Below, piece after piece: positions 11,704 to 64,000 of a stretch of 64,000 bases of DNA; position 1 is the first letter of the stretch, and each line of letters starts with the position of its first letter. The stretch is from Myxococcaceae bacterium (lineage in GTDB: Bacteria; Myxococcota_A; Polyangia; Polyangiales; Ga0077539). The translations under genes and the position numbers were made by a program. Where the stretch lies: the NCBI GenBank assembly GCA_004297725.1, contig SCUS01000133.1, forward strand, positions 332,455 through 396,454, in the 5' to 3' direction. The notes under the pieces were generated by a model that had not been told where the DNA came from, ran no database searches, and worked only from the letters and a program-made list of their open reading frames with translations.

Positions 11704-14700
11704 TTGAAGAGACTGCGATCCACTGCGGATCGGCCGCATCGGAGGAGAGTCTCGCCTAGGTACAAATGGATACTTTTCGCTGCGGCGCTGGTCGCTGCTG
11801 GCTGTGACGGCGCCTCGGTCGTCGGCGGCACGGAGCCCCGCGACGCGACCGTCGACGTCACCGCGGACGCCACCATGGACGCGTCGGTGTGCCCGTCGCC
11901 CCTGCTGTCGTGCAACCAGCGCTGCGCCGACCCGCGCACCGACCGGGAGAACTGCGGCGCCTGCGGGCGCTCGTGCTCCACGGGCAACGTCTGTCAGAAC
12001 GGCGCCTGCGTACCGGACTGTGGGACCGGCGAGACGCTCTGCCGCTCGGCCGGCGACGCCGGAGCGGGCCTCGCGTGCGTCTCCCTCCGCACCGACCGGG
12101 CGAACTGCGGCGCTTGCGGGATGGCCTGCGGCACCAACCAGGTCTGCGCCAACGGCGCGTGCACGTTCATGTGCACCGGCACCACGACCGAGTGCACCCG
12201 CGGCGGCGCGGGCATGGACGGCGGCGGCGAGCGCTACTGCGCCGACCTGCAGGCCGACCGCAACGACTGCGGCGCCTGCGGAAACACCTGCACGGACGGC
12301 TACTCCTGCCAGGCCGGCCGCTGCCGCATCCGCTGCCCCGAGCTCTCGGTCCAGTGCCCCGCCCCGGCGACCGACGGCGGCATGCCCGGCGCTGAGGTCT
12401 GCTCGGACACCAGCATCGACATCAACAACTGCGGGAGCTGCGGCAACGCCTGCCCGTTCGGACAGTTCTGCGTCCGCGGCGCCTGCCGTACGACCTGCGG
12501 CGCGGGCTTCACCGACTGCATGGGCGTCTGCCGTGACCTCACCAGCGACCGCCTCGGCTGCGGCGCCTGCGGCAACGCGTGCGGATCCGGCGAGGTCTGC
12601 ACCGCGGGCCGCTGCGTCGTCTCCTGCGGCGGCGGCCTCACGAGCTGCGAGAACGTCTGCCGTGACATCCAGACCGACGTGAACAACTGCGGCGCCTGCG
12701 GCACCCGCTGCATGCCCGGCCAGGTCTGCTCTCGCGGGATGTGTCAGGTCTCGTGCAGCGCGGGCACCGCGGACTGCTCGGGCACCTGCCGCGACCTCCA
12801 GACCGACAACGCCCACTGCGGCGCCTGCGGCACGGCCTGCGCGGCCGGCCAGATCTGCTCCATGGGCGCCTGCGTCGTCTCGTGCGGCGCCGGCACCACC
12901 AACTGCTCGGGCACCTGCCGCGACCTCCAGACCGACAACGCCAACTGCGGCGCCTGCGGCACGGCCTGCGCGGCCGGCCAGGTCTGCTCGCGCGGCGCCT
13001 GCACCGTCACCTGCGGCGGCGGCCTCACCAACTGCAGCAACGTCTGCCGTGACCTCGACACCGACCGCGCCAACTGCGGCGCGTGCGGCACCACCTGCGC
13101 CGCGGGCCAGGTCTGCTCCGCGGGCCGCTGCCAGGTGTCCTGCCTCGAGGGCCTCACCAACTGCACGGGCGTCTGCCGCGACCTCGCGAGCGACGTGAAC
13201 AACTGCGGCGGCTGCGGCATGGCCTGCGCCGCGGGCCAGGTGTGCTCCGGCGGCATGTGCCGCGTCTCCTGTGGCGCCGGCACCACCAACTGCGGCGGCA
13301 TCTGCCGCGACCTGCAGACCGACGTGAACAACTGCGCCTCCTGCGGCATGGCCTGCCCCGCGGGTCAGGTGTGCTCGAACGCGGCCTGCGTGGTCTCGTG
13401 CGGCACCGGCCTCACGGACTGCATGGGCGTCTGCCGCGACCTGCAGACCGACCGCGTCAACTGCGGCGCCTGCGGCACCACCTGCCCCTCGGGCCAGGCG
13501 TGCGCCGCGGGGCGCTGCGTGGTCTCGTGCCTCGCGGGCCAGACCGCCTGCTCGGGCGTCTGCCGTGACCTGCAGACCGACATCAACCACTGCGGCGCCT
13601 GCGGCACCGCCTGCCCCTCGGGCCAGGTGTGCAACGGCGGCATGTGCCGCGTGTCCTGCGGCACTGGGCTCTCGAACTGCGGCGGCACCTGCCGCGACCT
13701 CCAGACGGACAACAACCACTGCGGCTCGTGCGGCACCGTCTGCCCGGGCGGCCAGATCTGCCAGGCCGGCGCCTGCGTCGTCACCTGCCAGATGGGCCTC
13801 ACGGCCTGCGGCGCCACCTGCCGCGACCTCGGCAACGACAACACCAACTGCGGCGCCTGCGGCCGGGTGTGCGCCGCCGGCCAGGCCTGCGTGGCGGGGG
13901 CCTGCTCGGTCACCTGCAGCGCGGGCCTCAGCAACTGCTCGGGCACCTGCCGTGACCTCCAGAACGACCGCACCAACTGCGGCACCTGCGGCACGACCTG
14001 CCCGTCGGGCCAGGTGTGCACCGCGGGCGCTTGCGTGATCACGTGCCCCATCGGCCAGACGGCCTGCGGCTCCACGTGCGTCAACCTCGTGTCCGACCGC
14101 AACAACTGCGGCGCCTGCGGCACCGTGTGCCCCGCGGGCCAGATCTGCGCGGGCTCGGCCTGCGTGACGAGCTGCGCGGCGGGCCTCACGGCCTGCGGCA
14201 CCACCTGCCGCGACATCACGACCGACGTCAGCAACTGCGGCATGTGCGGGCGCGTCTGCACGGCCGGCCAGAGCTGCGTGGCCGGCGCGTGCACCCTGGT
14301 GTGCCCTGCCGGGCAGACCAACTGCTCGGGCACCTGCCGCGACCTGCAGACCGACCTCAACAACTGCGGCGCCTGCGGCACCACCTGCCCGGGCGGCCAG
14401 GTCTGCTCCGCGGGTCGCTGCGTGGTGACCTGCGCGGCCGGCCTCACCAACTGCTCGGGTAGCTGCACCAACGTCGCCACCGACCCGGGCAACTGCGGCG
14501 CCTGCGGCACCGTCTGCCCTGCTCGCGCCAACGCGTCGTCGTCCTGCGCGGGCTCTCGCTGCGGCTTCGTCTGCAACGCCGGCTTCGCCGACTGCGACGG
14601 CAACGCGGCCAACGGCTGCGAGGTCAACACCGGCACCTCGCTCACCAACTGCGGCGCCTGCGGCACCGTCTGCTCCATCAGCAATGGCGTGGGCGTGTGC

Positions 14701-15540
14701 TCTTCGGGCGCGTGCCGAGTGGCCTCGTGCAACACGGGCTTCGGCGACTGCAACGCGATGCCCACGGACGGCTGCGAGACCAACACGCAGACCTCGTCCT
14801 CGAACTGCGGCGCGTGCGGCACGGTCTGCGCTGGCGGCGGCGCCTGCACGGCCGGGAGCTGCGCCCCGCGCTGCAACACCGCGGCGGCGCGCGTGCTGGT
14901 CTACGGGCCGGGCGGCACCTCGGGGACGTCGATGTTCCCGTCTGGGACGGTCGTGACGGTGGCGAGCGACGCGATGTGGCGCTCGATGACCGCCGCGCAG
15001 TTCGAGCAGTACGACCTCATCTGGATCGACGGCGGCACCTGCGGCGGCACCACGTCCTCGCTCTTCGGCACGGCGCAGGACACCCTGGCTACCTGGGGTC
15101 CCGCGGTGCGAGGGCGCATCGTGCTCCTCACGGGTGACCCCGACCTCCACCGCAACAACGACACCCCGGTGCTCTACCGCAACACGGTCAACTGGCTGAA
15201 GGGCCTGGGGCGCACCAGCGACGGCGGCCGCACCGGTCTCTTCTTCTCCTGGGGCTGCACCACGTACACCAGCAGCGTCTTCAGCGTGTCGCGCGGAGCC
15301 CCGGAGGTCTTCACCAGCGTGCTGGGCTCGGGCATCAGCACCCGGGTCTTCAACCCCTGCGAGGCCACCCTCACCGCGGCCGCGGCGAGCCACCCCGTGA
15401 CCTCGGGCTTCACCAGCTTCTGGGACTGCCCGATGCACGGCGCGTTCATGTCGATCCCCACGGGCTACGTGACCCTCGGCGTCAGCGGCGGCTCACCCAG
15501 CCTCATCGCGCGCGAGTCCGCCACCGCCTGCATCCCCTGA
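11704..15540 (+). CDS. Giant Cys-rich repeat lipoprotein with 22 tandem ~43-aa 8-Cys units and a C-terminal alpha/beta-looking domain
   Basis: Repeat consensus CGAGLTNCSGTCRDLQTDNANCGACGTACAAGQVCSRGACVVT; lipobox LVAAGC; apparent TTG start at 11704. Resembles Cys-rich (MXAN_6577-like) myxobacterial proteins as I recall them. Confidence 0.85.
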   Translation: MKRLRSTADRPHRRRVSPRYKWILFAAALVAAGCDGASVVGGTEPRDATVDVTADATMDASVCPSPLLSCNQRCADPRTDRENCGACGRSCSTGNVCQNGACVPDCGTGETLCRSAGDAGAGLACVSLRTDRANCGACGMACGTNQVCANGACTFMCTGTTTECTRGGAGMDGGGERYCADLQADRNDCGACGNTCTDGYSCQAGRCRIRCPELSVQCPAPATDGGMPGAEVCSDTSIDINNCGSCGNACPFGQFCVRGACRTTCGAGFTDCMGVCRDLTSDRLGCGACGNACGSGEVCTAGRCVVSCGGGLTSCENVCRDIQTDVNNCGACGTRCMPGQVCSRGMCQVSCSAGTADCSGTCRDLQTDNAHCGACGTACAAGQICSMGACVVSCGAGTTNCSGTCRDLQTDNANCGACGTACAAGQVCSRGACTVTCGGGLTNCSNVCRDLDTDRANCGACGTTCAAGQVCSAGRCQVSCLEGLTNCTGVCRDLASDVNNCGGCGMACAAGQVCSGGMCRVSCGAGTTNCGGICRDLQTDVNNCASCGMACPAGQVCSNAACVVSCGTGLTDCMGVCRDLQTDRVNCGACGTTCPSGQACAAGRCVVSCLAGQTACSGVCRDLQTDINHCGACGTACPSGQVCNGGMCRVSCGTGLSNCGGTCRDLQTDNNHCGSCGTVCPGGQICQAGACVVTCQMGLTACGATCRDLGNDNTNCGACGRVCAAGQACVAGACSVTCSAGLSNCSGTCRDLQNDRTNCGTCGTTCPSGQVCTAGACVITCPIGQTACGSTCVNLVSDRNNCGACGTVCPAGQICAGSACVTSCAAGLTACGTTCRDITTDVSNCGMCGRVCTAGQSCVAGACTLVCPAGQTNCSGTCRDLQTDLNNCGACGTTCPGGQVCSAGRCVVTCAAGLTNCSGSCTNVATDPGNCGACGTVCPARANASSSCAGSRCGFVCNAGFADCDGNAANGCEVNTGTSLTNCGACGTVCSISNGVGVCSSGACRVASCNTGFGDCNAMPTDGCETNTQTSSSNCGACGTVCAGGGACTAGSCAPRCNTAAARVLVYGPGGTSGTSMFPSGTVVTVASDAMWRSMTAAQFEQYDLIWIDGGTCGGTTSSLFGTAQDTLATWGPAVRGRIVLLTGDPDLHRNNDTPVLYRNTVNWLKGLGRTSDGGRTGLFFSWGCTTYTSSVFSVSRGAPEVFTSVLGSGISTRVFNPCEATLTAAAASHPVTSGFTSFWDCPMHGAFMSIPTGYVTLGVSGGSPSLIARESATACIP
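12754..14459 (+). repeat. Core of 129-bp degenerate tandem coding repeats
   Basis: Successive unit starts differ by exactly 129 bp (e.g. TGC at 12754 and 12883); each unit encodes 43 aa with eight Cys in register. Confidence 0.85.
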
Positions 15541-28578: not shown

Positions 28579-29961
28579 TCAGCGGTGGCCGTCGGTCGAC
28601 CCCGGCGGCAGCATCGAGTCGCGCTCGAGGCGCCCGAGCTGCGCGTCGACCTGGCGGAAGCGCTCGGCGAGCGCCCGCACGAAGGCCCCCGCGTGGGAGT
28701 AGAGCCCGATCTGCTCGATGAGCAGCTCGCGCGTCACCCGCATCACCGTGAGCTCGTCGAGGGCCTCGACGTTCGCCGTGCGCGGCTTCTCGGTGAACAC
28801 CGCGGTCTCTCCGAAGACCTCCCCGGGGCCCATCTCCCGCAGCGTCACCCGGCGCCCGTCGACCTCACGGAAGACCTCGCAGCGCCCCGCGACGATGATG
28901 TACGCCGCCTCGCCGGTCTCGCCCTCGGTGACCACCCTCGCGCCCGGGGCGAAGCGCTCCCGCGGAAACCGGTCGAGGCTTCGCAGGTGGCGCTCCAGCT
29001 CCGAGCGGAAGTCCAGCACGCTCCGGTAGCGGTCGCCCGGCAGCGAGGAGAGCGCCTTCATCGCCGTGAGGCAGAGGCCCTCCGGCAGGTCGAGTTGCGG
29101 CACCTGCTCGCGCGGCGCGACGACCTTGCCGCTGGCCGCCTCCCACACCACGGCCATCAAGCTGTCGCCCGAGTGCGGCGTCTTGCCGGTGAGCATCTCG
29201 TAGAGCACGGCGCCCAGCAGGTACACATCCGTCCGCTCGTCGATCGCGTCGTGGAGCCCGATGGCCTGCTCCGGCGCCATGTACGCCGGCGTCCCGTAGA
29301 TGTGCACCCGCTGGCTGCTCGGCTCCGGCGCGGCGAGGCGCTCTGGAGGCAGCACGTCGTGGCGCCCGAAGGCGGCCGGGTTGATCACCCGCGCGACGCC
29401 CCAGTCCATCAGGTAGACCTGCCCGAACTCGCCCACCATGATGTTCTCGGGCTTGATGTCGCAGTGCACCACGCCGCGCGAGTGCGCGAAGGCCACCGCG
29501 TCGCACACCTTCAGGAGCACCTGCACCAGGTGATCGAGCCGACCCGAGGGCCACGGCAGGCCCGCCGGGTCGAGGATCTCCGCCCTCAGCGTGCGCCCCT
29601 CCACCAGCTTCATCGAGAAGCACGGCAGCCCGTCCGCCCCTTCGCCCAGCAGGTGCACCGGGACGATGTTGGGGTGCTCCAGGGCGCCGGTGATCTGCGC
29701 CTCCAGCACGAAGCGCTGCACCAGGTCGGGCCGGTCGCCGATGGAGTCGTGGAGCAGCTTCACCGCGACGTGCCGACCCAGCGGGCGATCGAGCGCGCGA
29801 CGCACCGCGCCCATGCCCCCGCGCGCCACGAGGCCAAGGTCGGTGTACGGCTCGCAGAGCGAGGGAGCCCGCTGGGTGTCTTCGGTGACCGCCTCGGCCG
29901 ACGCCTCGAGGGCCATCGTGGTCATCGACTCGAAGCCCTCGTCGTTTCGTACCGCGCCCAT
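28579..29961 (-). CDS. Serine/threonine protein kinase with C-terminal cyclic-nucleotide-binding-like domain
   Basis: VAVKLL, HCDIKPENIM, MDWGVARV, GTPAYMAPEQA; then ARVVTEGETGEAAYIIVAGRCEVFREVDGRRVTLREMGPGEVFGETAVF (cNMP-binding fold). Confidence 0.88.
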   Translation of the reverse strand: MGAVRNDEGFESMTTMALEASAEAVTEDTQRAPSLCEPYTDLGLVARGGMGAVRRALDRPLGRHVAVKLLHDSIGDRPDLVQRFVLEAQITGALEHPNIVPVHLLGEGADGLPCFSMKLVEGRTLRAEILDPAGLPWPSGRLDHLVQVLLKVCDAVAFAHSRGVVHCDIKPENIMVGEFGQVYLMDWGVARVINPAAFGRHDVLPPERLAAPEPSSQRVHIYGTPAYMAPEQAIGLHDAIDERTDVYLLGAVLYEMLTGKTPHSGDSLMAVVWEAASGKVVAPREQVPQLDLPEGLCLTAMKALSSLPGDRYRSVLDFRSELERHLRSLDRFPRERFAPGARVVTEGETGEAAYIIVAGRCEVFREVDGRRVTLREMGPGEVFGETAVFTEKPRTANVEALDELTVMRVTRELLIEQIGLYSHAGAFVRALAERFRQVDAQLGRLERDSMLPPGSTDGHR

Positions 29962-30020
29962 CAGGGCGTGGACAGTACGACGATCCCCGAAAGCCGGTCC
30001 AGGGACCACCACGCTTGGAG

Positions 30021-30524
30021 CTACGCCTCGGGCATCACCGTCGCGCCGCCTCGCAGGGTGATGAGCAGCGCCTCGGCGTCCATCCGATCCTCCGCCGAAG
30101 GCCGCCCCTTGAGGAAGCGCTCGAGGCACATCATCGCCTCCACCTTGCGCCCGGTCTCCGCGTAGCTGAGCCCCAGCAGGTGCAGCGCGTCGCCGTCGTC
30201 GGCGCTGATCTCCAGCGCCCGCTCGCCCGCGTCGATGGCCTCCTCGAAGCGCGCCAGCTCATAGAGGCACCAGCCCCGGTAGACCTGCGCGCCGAGGTGC
30301 CCGGGGTCGCGGTCGATGGCCTCGGCGAAGGCCGCCAGCGCCGCGCCCGCCTTCTCCTTCCGCATGAACGCGAGCCCCAGGTAGTAGTGCGCGTGCGCGT
30401 TGCCAGGGTCGGCCAGCAGCACCTCGCGCAGCGCCTTCACGGCGCCGTCGATGTCTTCCTCGTGCAGCAGCTCGATGGGCTCCTCCACCGCCGCCCAGCG
30501 CTCGTCTTCCGTGCGTCCGCTCAT
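30021..30524 (-). CDS. Tetratricopeptide repeat protein
   Basis: AHAHYYLGLAFMRKEKAGAALAAFAEAIDRDPGHLGAQVYRGWCLYELARFEEAIDAGERAL; ATGA overlap with upstream gene. Confidence 0.8.
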   Translation of the reverse strand: MSGRTEDERWAAVEEPIELLHEEDIDGAVKALREVLLADPGNAHAHYYLGLAFMRKEKAGAALAAFAEAIDRDPGHLGAQVYRGWCLYELARFEEAIDAGERALEISADDGDALHLLGLSYAETGRKVEAMMCLERFLKGRPSAEDRMDAEALLITLRGGATVMPEA

Positions 30525-33505: not shown

Positions 33506-35065
33506 TCAGCGGTGGACGCGGAGCACGTAGCGGAGGCGCACCTGGCTCTCCTTGTAGAGCAGGTACTCCGACTGGGTGAACGAGCTCTTGGCGTGCGCGG
33601 GCACCTTGATGGGCTTGCCCTGCGGCACGACGACCTTCTTGCCGTCGAGGGTGATGGTGATGTCGTGCTGCGGATCGGGCTCGGTGTGGCCGCGCGCCAC
33701 GATGGAGTCGTAGCCCTTCGGCGCCTCCTTGAGGGAGGAGTCGTCCTTCAGGATGGAGTGCTCCTTGCCGAGCGCCGCCTCCGCCAGGAACATCACGCCC
33801 GTGCTGCCCGCCCAGCCCACGTAGTTGACGGACTTGCCGTTCTCCGAGGCGAGGTAGATGCCCTTGCCGACGCGGCCGCCGGAGTGCGGCATGATGCGCA
33901 GCCCCGACCCGAGGATCGCCGCCACCACGGCGACGTTGGTGCCGTGCCAGAGCAGCTTGCGCTCGGCGATGGTGTCGTGCGCCTTGAAGCGATCGTGCTC
34001 CCCGTGGCGGTTGAGGCGGAACACGTCGACCAGCTTGAGGTTGTAGTAGCTGGCCCCGGTGGACTGCAGGTACTTCTGGATCCAGGCGTACTCCTCGGAG
34101 CTCGGGTCGATGTACTCGAGGTCGGCCTTGATCTTCTTGTAGTTCTCGTCGGCCGGGTGCGGCACGGCCTCGGGCTCGGGCCCCGCCGCGGCGGCCTTCT
34201 CCATGCTCAGCGCGATCTCGATGTCGTTGAGCACGTTGAGCATCTCCACCTTCTTGTGGAGCAGCTCCGGCGTGTTGATGGGCGGCGGAATCTTCCGCCC
34301 GAAGCTGTGCGGGATGAGCGTGTAGAACTTCGACGAGATCGTGTTGATCTGATTGGCGTTGGCGGTGTTGATCGCCTGCTCGAGCTCTTCGAGGACGTCG
34401 TAGCCCTTCTTCACCTGGGACTTGGAGATCTGCCCGAGGGGCATCTTCTTCACGTCGATGTCGAAGGACGCCATCGCGCCCTTGAACATGTCCTGGTCGA
34501 AGATGAGCTGCATGAAGTTCTGCACCGAGGTGTGCAGCGCGCTCGGGAGCACCTTCTTGGTGACCTTCGGCTGGAGCGACGCGGCGGCCTTGTCGATCGC
34601 CTTGAGCTTCTCCTCGACCTCCGCGGCCTTGGCGCTGTCGGCCGAGCGCTCGATCTCGATCAGCGCGTACTTGCCCGCCTTGGCGACGAAGTTCTTCCGG
34701 TTGTCCCAGCCGTTGCCGGACTTGTCCTTGAACTTCGCCTCGAAGTCCTTGATGGCGCTCGCCGCCGCCGGGTACGGGCCCTTCAGCGCCGTCTGGCCGA
34801 CCTCGCCCACGCGGCCCCAGCGGTTCCACGCGTAGAACTTGCCGCCCGACTCCAGCACCTGGATCACATAGAACTTGTTGTTGTTCGCCCCGATGTTCGT
34901 CTGGTTGAGCATGCAGTCGTAGTCCTCGTGGACCTTCGCCGTGCTCTTGAGGGGACAGTTGTCGTCGACCGGGATGGTCACCGCGCCCGCGGCCGGCGCC
35001 GGGGCCGCCGTCGTCGTCGCTGCCGTAGCCGTAGCCGTCGTGCCCGTCGTCTTCGCCTTCGCCAT
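33506..35065 (-). CDS. Poly(ADP-ribose) polymerase: WGR + PARP regulatory + PARP catalytic domains
   Basis: KFYVIQVLESGGKFYAWNRWGRVGEVGQ (WGR); LLWHGTNVAVVAAILGSGLRI, GKGIYLASENGKSVNYV, FTQSEYLLYKESQVRLRYVLRV (H-Y-E catalytic pattern); ATG 35065 preceded by an AGGAAAGG-like RBS. Confidence 0.92.
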   Translation of the reverse strand: MAKAKTTGTTATATAATTTAAPAPAAGAVTIPVDDNCPLKSTAKVHEDYDCMLNQTNIGANNNKFYVIQVLESGGKFYAWNRWGRVGEVGQTALKGPYPAAASAIKDFEAKFKDKSGNGWDNRKNFVAKAGKYALIEIERSADSAKAAEVEEKLKAIDKAAASLQPKVTKKVLPSALHTSVQNFMQLIFDQDMFKGAMASFDIDVKKMPLGQISKSQVKKGYDVLEELEQAINTANANQINTISSKFYTLIPHSFGRKIPPPINTPELLHKKVEMLNVLNDIEIALSMEKAAAAGPEPEAVPHPADENYKKIKADLEYIDPSSEEYAWIQKYLQSTGASYYNLKLVDVFRLNRHGEHDRFKAHDTIAERKLLWHGTNVAVVAAILGSGLRIMPHSGGRVGKGIYLASENGKSVNYVGWAGSTGVMFLAEAALGKEHSILKDDSSLKEAPKGYDSIVARGHTEPDPQHDITITLDGKKVVVPQGKPIKVPAHAKSSFTQSEYLLYKESQVRLRYVLRVHR

Positions 35066-44709: not shown

Positions 44710-44844
44710 CGGACAGGATATGTCACGGCGACCGGGACAGGGCCTTGTCGTATGTTCAGTGCCGGGGCATACATCGGCTGCGTGACGCGGCGCCGAGAGG
44801 GCGAACGCCACCGCACCCCGTCACAACCCTCAGGAGAGACCACC

Positions 44845-61716: not shown

Positions 61717-61809
61717 GGCGGGGCTCGAGAGCTAACGCACCCTCCCCCACGGCGTCGACCGGCCAGACCCTTCCGCGGAGGCCATGCCCCGGGCTACCGT
61801 CGCTCGCAG

Positions 61810-64000
61810 ATGAGGTCCTCCATGCGCTGGGTCGATGCGTTCTCAAGATGGTTGCCCGCCCTCGCGCTCGCCGCGACGGTCGGCTGTTCGACAGGAAGCA
61901 GCGTCGTCGGAGGCCCGGCCGACGCGGGCGTCGACGTCGCGACGGACATGGGTCCGCCCGCCTGCCCGACGGGCCAGTCCCGCTGCGGAGGGCAGTGCGT
62001 CGACACCGCATCCGACCGCGCCAACTGCGGCGGGTGCGCCAACGCCTGCGGGCAGGCCCAGGTCTGCTCCTCCGGGGTCTGCACCCTGAGCTGTCCCACC
62101 GGGCAGAACGCCTGCGGCGGGGTGTGCGCCAACTTCCGCACCGACCTGCAGAACTGCGGCGCCTGCGACCGGCGCTGCCCCGCGGGCCAGGTGTGCAGCG
62201 ACGGCGCCTGCACCACCACCTGCGCGGCCGACCTCGCGACCTGCTCCGTGCCCACCGACGGCGGCGTGCCCGACGGCGGCGCGGCGACCTTCTGCGCCGA
62301 CCTGCGCATCGACCGCAACCACTGCGGCGCCTGCGGGATGATCTGCCCGCCGGGCAACAACTGCGTCAACTCCCGCTGCACCGTCGACTGCCCCTCGGCC
62401 TCGGTGGCCTGCGACAACCGCTGCGTCGATCCGCTCACCGACCGCGCCAACTGCGGCGGCTGCGGCACCGCCTGCCCGGCGGGCCAGGTGTGCTCCGCGG
62501 GCGCCTGCCAGGTCTCCTGCGGCAGCGGCACCACCAACTGCTCGGGCGTCTGCCGCGACACGCAGACCGACAACGCCAACTGCGGCGCCTGCGGCACCGC
62601 CTGCGCCGCGGGCCAGGTGTGCTCCCGCGGCTCGTGCGTGGTGACCTGCGGGGCGGGGCTCACCAACTGCGAGGGCGTCTGCCGCGACACGCAGACCGAC
62701 GTCGCCAACTGCGGCGCCTGCGGGATGCGCTGCGCCGCGGGCCGGGTGTGCTCCGCGGGCGCCTGCACCGTCTCCTGCGGCGGCGGCACCACCGACTGCG
62801 GCGGCGTCTGCCGTGACACGCAGACCGACATCGCCAACTGCGGCGCCTGCGGCACCGCCTGCCCCTCCGGGCAGGTGTGCTCCCGCGGGGCCTGCGTGGT
62901 GACATGCGGCGCGGGCCTCACGGCCTGCGGCGGCGTGTGCCGCGACCTCGACTCCGACCTGCGCAACTGCGGCTCCTGCGGCACCTCGTGCCCGGCGGGC
63001 CAGGTGTGCTCCGCGGGGGCGTGCACCGTCTCCTGCGGCGGCGGCACCACCAACTGCTCGGGCGTCTGCCGCGACACGCAGACCGACAACGCCCACTGCG
63101 GCGCCTGCGGCATCAACTGCCCCTCGGGGCAGGTGTGCTCCCGCGGCTCGTGCGTGGTGACCTGCGGCGCGGGGCTCAGCAACTGCGACGGCACCTGCCG
63201 TGACCAGCAGACGGACAACAACCACTGCGGCGCCTGCGGCCGGGCGTGCCTCGCGGGCCAGGTGTGCTCTCGCGGGGCGTGCGTGGTGACCTGCGGCGTC
63301 GGGCTCTCCAACTGCGACGGCGTCTGCCGAGACCTCGTGACGGACAACGCCAACTGCGGCACCTGCGGGCGCACCTGCGCCGACGGCGAGACCTGCCGAC
63401 TCGGGGCGTGCCTGCTGAGCTGCATGAGCGGCCTCACCAACTGCTCGGGCGCGTGCCGCGACACCCGGACCGACAGCGCCAACTGCGGCGCGTGCGGGGC
63501 AGCCTGCGCGAGCGGCCAGGCCTGCGTGGCGGGCGCCTGCGTGGTGAGCTGCGCCGCGGGGCAGACCAACTGCGGCGGAGTGTGCCGCGACACGCAGACC
63601 GACCTGGCCCATTGCGGCGGATGCGGCAGGGCCTGCGCAGCGGGGCAGGTGTGCTCCGGCGGGGCGTGCCGCGCGTCGTGCGGAACGGGCCTCACGGACT
63701 GCAGCGGGAGCTGCGTCTCGACGCAGAATGATCCCGCCCACTGCGGCGGCTGCGCGACCTCCTGCGGGGCGAGCCAGGTGTGCGTGGCGGGGCGATGCTT
63801 CCTGCTGTGCGCCTCGGGGGAGACCGTCTGCGGGAGCGTCTGCGCCAACCTCCAGAGCTCGTCGACCAACTGCGGAGCCTGCGGCAACGCGTGCGTGGGC
63901 GGCGCTCCCTGCGTGGGCGGGCGCTGCGGAGGCTTCCCCTCCGACGGCAGCGAAGGGGCGTTCAACCCGACGACGAACACCGTGCTCGCCCCGGGCGTGC
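61810..64000 (+). CDS. Second Cys-rich repeat lipoprotein, at least 15 units of ~43 aa (3' end lies outside the window)
   Basis: Hand translation from ATG 61810: MRSSMRWVDAFSRWLPALALAATVGCSTGSSVVGGPADAGVDVATDMG...CGAGLTNCEGVCRDTQTDVANCGACGMRCAAGRVCSAGACTVS...; no stop before the window end, so missing from the track. Confidence 0.88.
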   Translation, partial: MRSSMRWVDAFSRWLPALALAATVGCSTGSSVVGGPADAGVDVATDMGPPACPTGQSRCGGQCVDTASDRANCGGCANACGQAQVCSSGVCTLSCPTGQNACGGVCANFRTDLQNCGACDRRCPAGQVCSDGACTTTCAADLATCSVPTDGGVPDGGAATFCADLRIDRNHCGACGMICPPGNNCVNSRCTVDCPSASVACDNRCVDPLTDRANCGGCGTACPAGQVCSAGACQVSCGSGTTNCSGVCRDTQTDNANCGACGTACAAGQVCSRGSCVVTCGAGLTNCEGVCRDTQTDVANCGACGMRCAAGRVCSAGACTVSCGGGTTDCGGVCRDTQTDIANCGACGTACPSGQVCSRGACVVTCGAGLTACGGVCRDLDSDLRNCGSCGTSCPAGQVCSAGACTVSCGGGTTNCSGVCRDTQTDNAHCGACGINCPSGQVCSRGSCVVTCGAGLSNCDGTCRDQQTDNNHCGACGRACLAGQVCSRGACVVTCGVGLSNCDGVCRDLVTDNANCGTCGRTCADGETCRLGACLLSCMSGLTNCSGACRDTRTDSANCGACGAACASGQACVAGACVVSCAAGQTNCGGVCRDTQTDLAHCGGCGRACAAGQVCSGGACRASCGTGLTDCSGSCVSTQNDPAHCGGCATSCGASQVCVAGRCFLLCASGETVCGSVCANLQSSSTNCGACGNACVGGAPCVGGRCGGFPSDGSEGAFNPTTNTVLAPGV

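What the first reader, a model, noticed from the sequence alone, without database searches (positions are those of the whole stretch)
33506..35065. Bacterial PARP with WGR, regulatory and catalytic domains and an intact H-Y-E triad
Seen: WGR motif WNRWGRVGEVGQ, helical linker typical of the PARP regulatory domain, and catalytic LWHGT / GIYLAS / SEYLLY..QVRLRY. Established: full poly-ADP-ribosylating PARPs of this architecture are rare in bacteria, and DNA-damage-dependent PARPs use WGR for break sensing. No obvious ADP-ribose glycohydrolase (macrodomain) is encoded in this window. Inference: a DNA-break-activated ADP-ribosylation response.
Basis: partly seen in the sequence, partly recalled or inferred. 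Interest (0 to 1): 0.62.

Follow-up and report, generated by a model that had tools for sequence, protein, structure and literature searches.

The report
Bacterial PARP3-type DNA-break enzyme
A bacterium of the phylum Myxococcota carries a near-complete counterpart of the human DNA-break enzyme PARP3, inherited together with a second PARP and an unnamed DNA-binding protein, which suggests that some bacteria run a PARP-based DNA-damage response.

Summary
Observation confirmed. Window 33506-35065 (minus strand) encodes a 519-aa protein with WGR, PARP regulatory and catalytic domains and an intact H374-Y404-E500 triad. The reading needs one correction: it is not a generic poly-PARP but a PARP3-type enzyme. 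It is 53.6% identical to human PARP3 over 457 aa, groups with PARP3 at 100/99 support, shares PARP3's short D-loop, and keeps the PARP3 residues known to be needed for break sensing and catalysis. Human PARP3 mono-ADP-ribosylates, so break-activated mono- or short-chain modification is the better prediction. The wider picture is more interesting than the gene. The genome has two further full-length PARPs: B (PARP4-like, in a PARP-macrodomain-HEAT-SWIM operon) and C. In 318 class-mates every genome with A also has C and a DNA-binding protein D; in one close relative A, C and D have all decayed. B, C and D carry an operator shared with recA, ruvA, ruvB, recQ, priA, ssb, radA and topoisomerases; A carries it in two sister genera but not here. 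Bacterial WGR-reg-cat PARPs are known; the PARP3 orthology, the co-inherited two-PARP module and the repair regulon appear new. No activity has been shown.

The parts
33506..35065 (-). PARP A gene, 519 aa, PARP3-type ADP-ribosyltransferase
34982..35065 (-). N-terminal low-complexity Ala/Thr/Pro tail (residues 1-28); Lys-rich in relatives of another family
   Evidence: pLDDT under 50
34688..34921 (-). WGR domain, residues 49-126 (Y66, W83, R85 = human PARP3 Y83, W101, R103)
34139..34543 (-). PARP regulatory (helical) domain, residues 175-309
   Evidence: fold
33515..34099 (-). PARP catalytic (ART) domain, residues 323-517
33944..33946 (-). catalytic His374 codon
33854..33856 (-). catalytic Tyr404 codon
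33566..33568 (-). catalytic Glu500 codon
35111..35120 (.). palindrome GTTGTACAAC upstream of PARP A, kept (9-10 of 10) in two close relatives; role unknown
28579..30129 (-). Ser/Thr kinase with cNMP-binding domain; a 53% identical counterpart lies directly next to PARP A in G137, and it too has decayed in G147; possible partner
44711..44725 (+). repair-regulon operator GGACAGGATATGTCA upstream of recA, shared with PARP B, PARP C and gene D elsewhere in the genome
44845..45927 (+). recA (context of the operator)

Best explanation
PARP A is a bacterial orthologue of PARP3. Its WGR domain binds 5'-phosphorylated nicks or ends, the helical domain unfolds, and the ART domain uses NAD+ to add mono- (or very short) ADP-ribose to itself, nearby proteins or the DNA end. 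It works in a DNA-repair pathway together with a second WGR-containing PARP (C) and a winged-helix/MraZ-like, probably DNA-binding protein (D), and hydrolases encoded elsewhere (macrodomain, ARH) remove the mark. Shown here: domains, triad, break-sensing residues, PARP3 orthology, co-inheritance and co-decay of A, C and D, and repair-regulon operators at B, C, D and (in sister genera) A. Inferred: DNA-dependent activity, mono product, targets, reversal, and cooperation of A, C and D.
For: Human PARP3 is the best solved relative (catalytic part 400 bits, WGR 122 bits); 53.6% identity over 457 aa, against 37.6% and 34.6% to PARP1 and PARP2. Tree: A + PARP3 100/99. PARP3-specific short D-loop MPHSGGRVGKGIY and ARGHTEPD. 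Residues whose mutation disrupts human PARP3 break response (Y83, W101, R103) or catalysis (H384, E514) are Y66, W83, R85, H374, E500. Predicted fold: PARP3 catalytic domain TM 0.88-0.90 and PARP1 on a DNA break TM 0.88, by target length. Co-occurrence over 318 genomes: A-C 10/10, A-D 10/10, C-D 12 of 13. In G147 A and C are in-situ remnants with syntenic flanks and D is a fragment. A and C are tandem in G042. Operator upstream of B, C, D and recA, 39 sites against 0 in the reversed control, next to ruvA, ruvB, recQ, priA, ssb, radA, topoisomerase III; in G142 the only exact intergenic GTTGAC-N7-GTCAAC sites precede A and the D-C operon.
Against: No biochemistry. The window's own PARP A has no repair-regulon operator, and of the two C genes of this genus that were scored only one has it. 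Co-occurrence is concentrated in three to four families, so the hypergeometric P-values overstate independence; G147 also has a smaller assembly. The two planctomycete genomes with A have B but no C. A-C contact was not modelled. Mono versus poly cannot be read off the triad: H-Y-E is also the polymerase triad.
Confidence: 0.62

Rival explanations
1. It is a PARP1/2-like poly(ADP-ribose) polymerase, making long chains on break binding like the Herpetosiphon enzyme.
For: H-Y-E triad and full WGR-reg-cat architecture; the Herpetosiphon aurantiacus PARP is reported to make long PAR chains and to need DNA (PMC4245714).
Against: Closer to PARP3 than to PARP1/2 by identity, tree and D-loop; the positions of PARP1 M890 and Y986 (numbering from memory) are R and Q as in PARP3; no microbial PARG (PF10021) found, though that search had no positive control.
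Confidence: 0.2
2. It is a horizontally acquired enzyme with a role other than DNA repair, such as stress signalling together with the neighbouring histidine kinase, response regulator and Ser/Thr kinase.
For: Immediate neighbours in this genus are a two-component system and a kinase; the kinase is adjacent to PARP A in G137 and has decayed with it in G147; no repair operator at the window's own copy.
Against: Break-sensing WGR residues are kept; A carries the repair operator in two sister genera; co-inheritance with C and D, whose genes carry the operator.
Confidence: 0.12
3. It is part of an anti-phage defence system that depletes NAD+ or modifies DNA.
For: Patchy distribution; PARP B's operon partners match PADLOC HEAT/WGR and SWIM models labelled XIII.
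Against: No PADLOC match for A, C or D; A and C lie at chromosomal places conserved within the genus, without mobile genes beside them; only distant phage relatives.
Confidence: 0.05

Closest known systems
Human PARP3 (ARTD3)
   Same: WGR-reg-cat architecture, 53.6% identity, short D-loop, the tested break-sensing and catalytic residues, 100/99 grouping
   Different: Bacterial host; Ala/Thr-rich tail; in Myxococcota co-inherited with a second PARP and a wHTH/MraZ-like protein; no histones as substrate
Bacterial WGR-reg-cat PARPs (Herpetosiphon aurantiacus; Clostridioides difficile CD160; Deltaproteobacteria of clades 2.1 and 2.2; PMC5966428, PMC4245714)
   Same: Architecture and H-Y-E triad; rare and scattered in bacteria
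   Different: Those were described as Clade 1-like in general and, with one exception in the 2014 survey, as single copies; here a PARP3 orthologue with two paralogues. Their sequences were not on hand for direct comparison; plasmid-borne bacterial PARPs are only 22-28% identical
Human PARP4 (for paralogue B, not for A)
   Same: B groups with PARP4 at 100/99 and matches it best among solved structures
   Different: B has a WGR domain and a macrodomain-HEAT-SWIM operon; PARP4 has BRCT, VIT and vWA domains; long branches make the join less sure

Membership tests
PARP (H-Y-E ADP-ribosyltransferase) | ART fold with PF00644 match | tested here: met
   165 bits, E 2e-48; TM about 0.89 to the PARP3 catalytic domain
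PARP (H-Y-E ADP-ribosyltransferase) | His-Tyr-Glu triad | tested here: met
   H374, Y404, E500 invariant in 18 relatives
DNA-repair PARP (Clade 1) | WGR plus regulatory helical domain | tested here: met
   PF05406 and PF02877 above cut-off
DNA-repair PARP (Clade 1) | activation by DNA breaks | not testable with these tools
   conserved residues only
PARP3 | groups with PARP3 rather than PARP1/2 | tested here: met
   100/99 support; only human sequences were on hand for eukaryotes
PARP3 | short D-loop and WGR residues Y83/W101/R103 | tested here: met
PARP3 | mono-ADP-ribosyl product | not testable with these tools
   inferred from orthology
Poly(ADP-ribose) polymerase with reversible PAR metabolism | a PARG in the same genome | tested here: inconclusive
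   PF10021 absent but without a positive control; eukaryote-type PF05028 not searched; 3 macrodomains and 4 ARH found

The most novel reading that the evidence does not exclude
A, C and D form a dedicated bacterial DNA-break signalling module: two different WGR-containing PARPs and a winged-helix/MraZ-like DNA-binding protein, wired (in some genera all parts) into the recA repair regulon, with PARP3 and PARP4 lineages both present in bacteria. That would be a bacterial ADP-ribosylation DNA-damage response approaching eukaryotic complexity.
Probability: 0.45. Interest if true: 0.82.

Novelty: new variant of a known kind. Interest (0 to 1): 0.62.

Why it matters
Whether PARP signalling does anything in bacteria has been open since their PARPs were found (PMC4245714 says it is not known whether bacterial PAR metabolism is truly functional). 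A PARP3 orthologue that is inherited and lost together with a second PARP and a DNA-binding protein, some of them under the operator of recA and ruvAB, gives a specific, testable system. It also bears on the origin of the eukaryotic PARP3 and PARP4 lineages.

Tried and rejected
A common palindrome GTTGTACAAC for A, C and D: found only upstream of A in one genus. D as the regulator of the repair operator: the operator is abundant in all 13 genomes of the family, including six without intact D, and not enriched in D-bearing genomes of most other families. Contamination: rejected by synteny, contig size and GC3. Defence-system annotation of A, C, D: no PADLOC match. Phage or plasmid origin: only distant relatives. 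NCBIfam has no model for A, B, C or D. Literature on retron type XIII or on a LexA box of this group: nothing found in the held papers.

Full report
What is there. [quoted passage not shown] H374, Y404 and E500 form the triad and are invariant across 18 aligned relatives. The AlphaFold model (mean pLDDT 77.8, pTM 0.59) matches the human PARP3 catalytic domain (TM 0.88-0.90 by target) and PARP1 bound to a DNA break (TM 0.88 by target). The best structural matches are inhibitor-bound catalytic domains, so nothing suggests a blocked NAD+ pocket, but the pocket itself was not examined.

Which PARP. Human PARP3 is the closest solved protein in both the WGR and the catalytic part. The bacterial protein is 53.6% identical to it over 457 aa, while human PARP3 itself is only 36-38% identical to human PARP1 and PARP2. 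In the tree all 11 bacterial A proteins group with PARP3 at 100/99. The PARP3 short D-loop (MPHSGGRVGKGIY) and ARGHTEPD are shared. Human PARP3 needs Y83, W101 and R103 to respond properly to breaks and H384 and E514 for catalysis (PMC4992063); these are Y66, W83, R85, H374 and E500 here.

Two more PARPs. The genome holds PARP B (L053:9286-10749) and PARP C (L054:8918-10399), both WGR-reg-cat with H-Y-E. B groups with human PARP4 (100/99, long branches) and lies in an operon with a macrodomain protein (10 of 12 loci), a HEAT-like protein (9) and a SWIM protein (4; limited by locus ends) in Myxococcota and Planctomycetes. The genome also has two more macrodomains and four ARH-type hydrolases, so candidate removers of the mark exist.

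Co-inheritance. Over 318 Polyangia genomes, A occurs in 10, C in 13 (one a contig-end fragment), and D, a 213-226 aa protein first seen next to C, in 12. All 10 A genomes have C and D. The exceptions are a 64% complete assembly (C and D, no A), G084 (C and D) and G136 (C fragment). In G042 A and C are tandem genes. In G147, of the window's genus, A is a 52-residue remnant and C a fragment with three stops, each between its normal neighbours, and D is a 45-residue fragment. The kinase gene near A is a 47-residue remnant there too. The genomes fall into three to four families, so the P-values (1e-16 and below) overstate the independence, but the in-situ co-decay is separate evidence. Planctomycetes with A have B and no C, so the coupling is a Myxococcota feature. 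D has a winged-helix-like N-terminal part and a C-terminal part resembling MraZ (Foldseek probability 1.00 but E 0.003): probably DNA-binding, role unknown.

Regulation. An operator KGACAGGnTATGTCM was noticed upstream of D, B and recA. The own genome has 39 sites at up to one mismatch and none for the reversed control. Genes beside them include recA, ruvA, ruvB, recQ, priA, ssb, radA, a DinG/YoaA-type helicase, topoisomerase III, a topoisomerase VI B subunit, PARP B and PARP C, and the D site. The regulon is family-wide: all 13 genomes of the family carry 19-43 sites, including ones without A to D, so D is not its master regulator. D sites sit at -61 to -63 in all six D genomes of the family tested. 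For A, the site is present in G142 and weaker in G137, absent in the window's genus. In G142 three exact GTTGAC-N7-GTCAAC matches exist: before A, before the D-C operon, and one inside a coding gene. That this is a DNA-damage regulon is inferred from its members; induction was not shown.

Known or new. Bacterial WGR-reg-cat PARPs, including deltaproteobacterial ones, are described (PMC4245714, PMC5966428). In the 2014 survey only one bacterium had two PARP genes. I found no report of a PARP3 orthologue, of three full-length PARPs, or of a co-inherited PARP module in bacteria, within the open papers searched. I therefore rate it a new variant of a known kind.

Limits. No experiment; genomes are mostly metagenome assemblies; only human sequences for eukaryotes in the tree; Ku/LigD and PF05028 not searched; A-C-D contact not modelled; the taxonomy of the window (class Polyangia, Myxococcota) is inferred from named relatives such as 'Myxococcales bacterium' and 'Kofleriaceae bacterium' records.

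Noticed in passing
L053:4214-10749 (own genome, contig C118): PARP4-like WGR PARP in a conserved operon with a divergent macrodomain protein, a HEAT-like protein and a SWIM protein, also in other Polyangiales and planctomycete genomes; the last two match PADLOC models WGR_XIII/HEAT-ARM_XIII and SWIM_XIII (possibly retron type XIII accessory proteins, from memory).
   Followed up: partly
window 44711-44725 and 38 further sites in the own genome: Family-wide operator KGACAGGnTATGTCM beside recA, ruvA, ruvB, recQ, priA, ssb, radA and topoisomerases: an apparently undescribed repair regulon whose regulator is unknown.
   Followed up: partly
L102:1492-2160 (own genome, contig C192): Unnamed 222-aa protein D with winged-helix-like and MraZ-like parts, found only with PARP C in 318 genomes.
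   Followed up: partly
L050:9157-10833, L051:8447-10162, L052 (N-terminus of PARP A): In another family PARP A carries a long Lys-rich, histone-H1-like N-terminal tail instead of the Ala/Thr tail.
   Followed up: no
L053:10939-12207: A deoxyhypusine-synthase-like gene (PF01916, 182 bits) stands divergently next to PARP B, unusual for bacteria.
   Followed up: no
window 11994-15083 and 61794-63980: Minus-strand ORFs with repeated Pro/Gln-rich units (PQAPQL, SRQT-like), possibly a repeat protein or the antisense of one.
   Followed up: no
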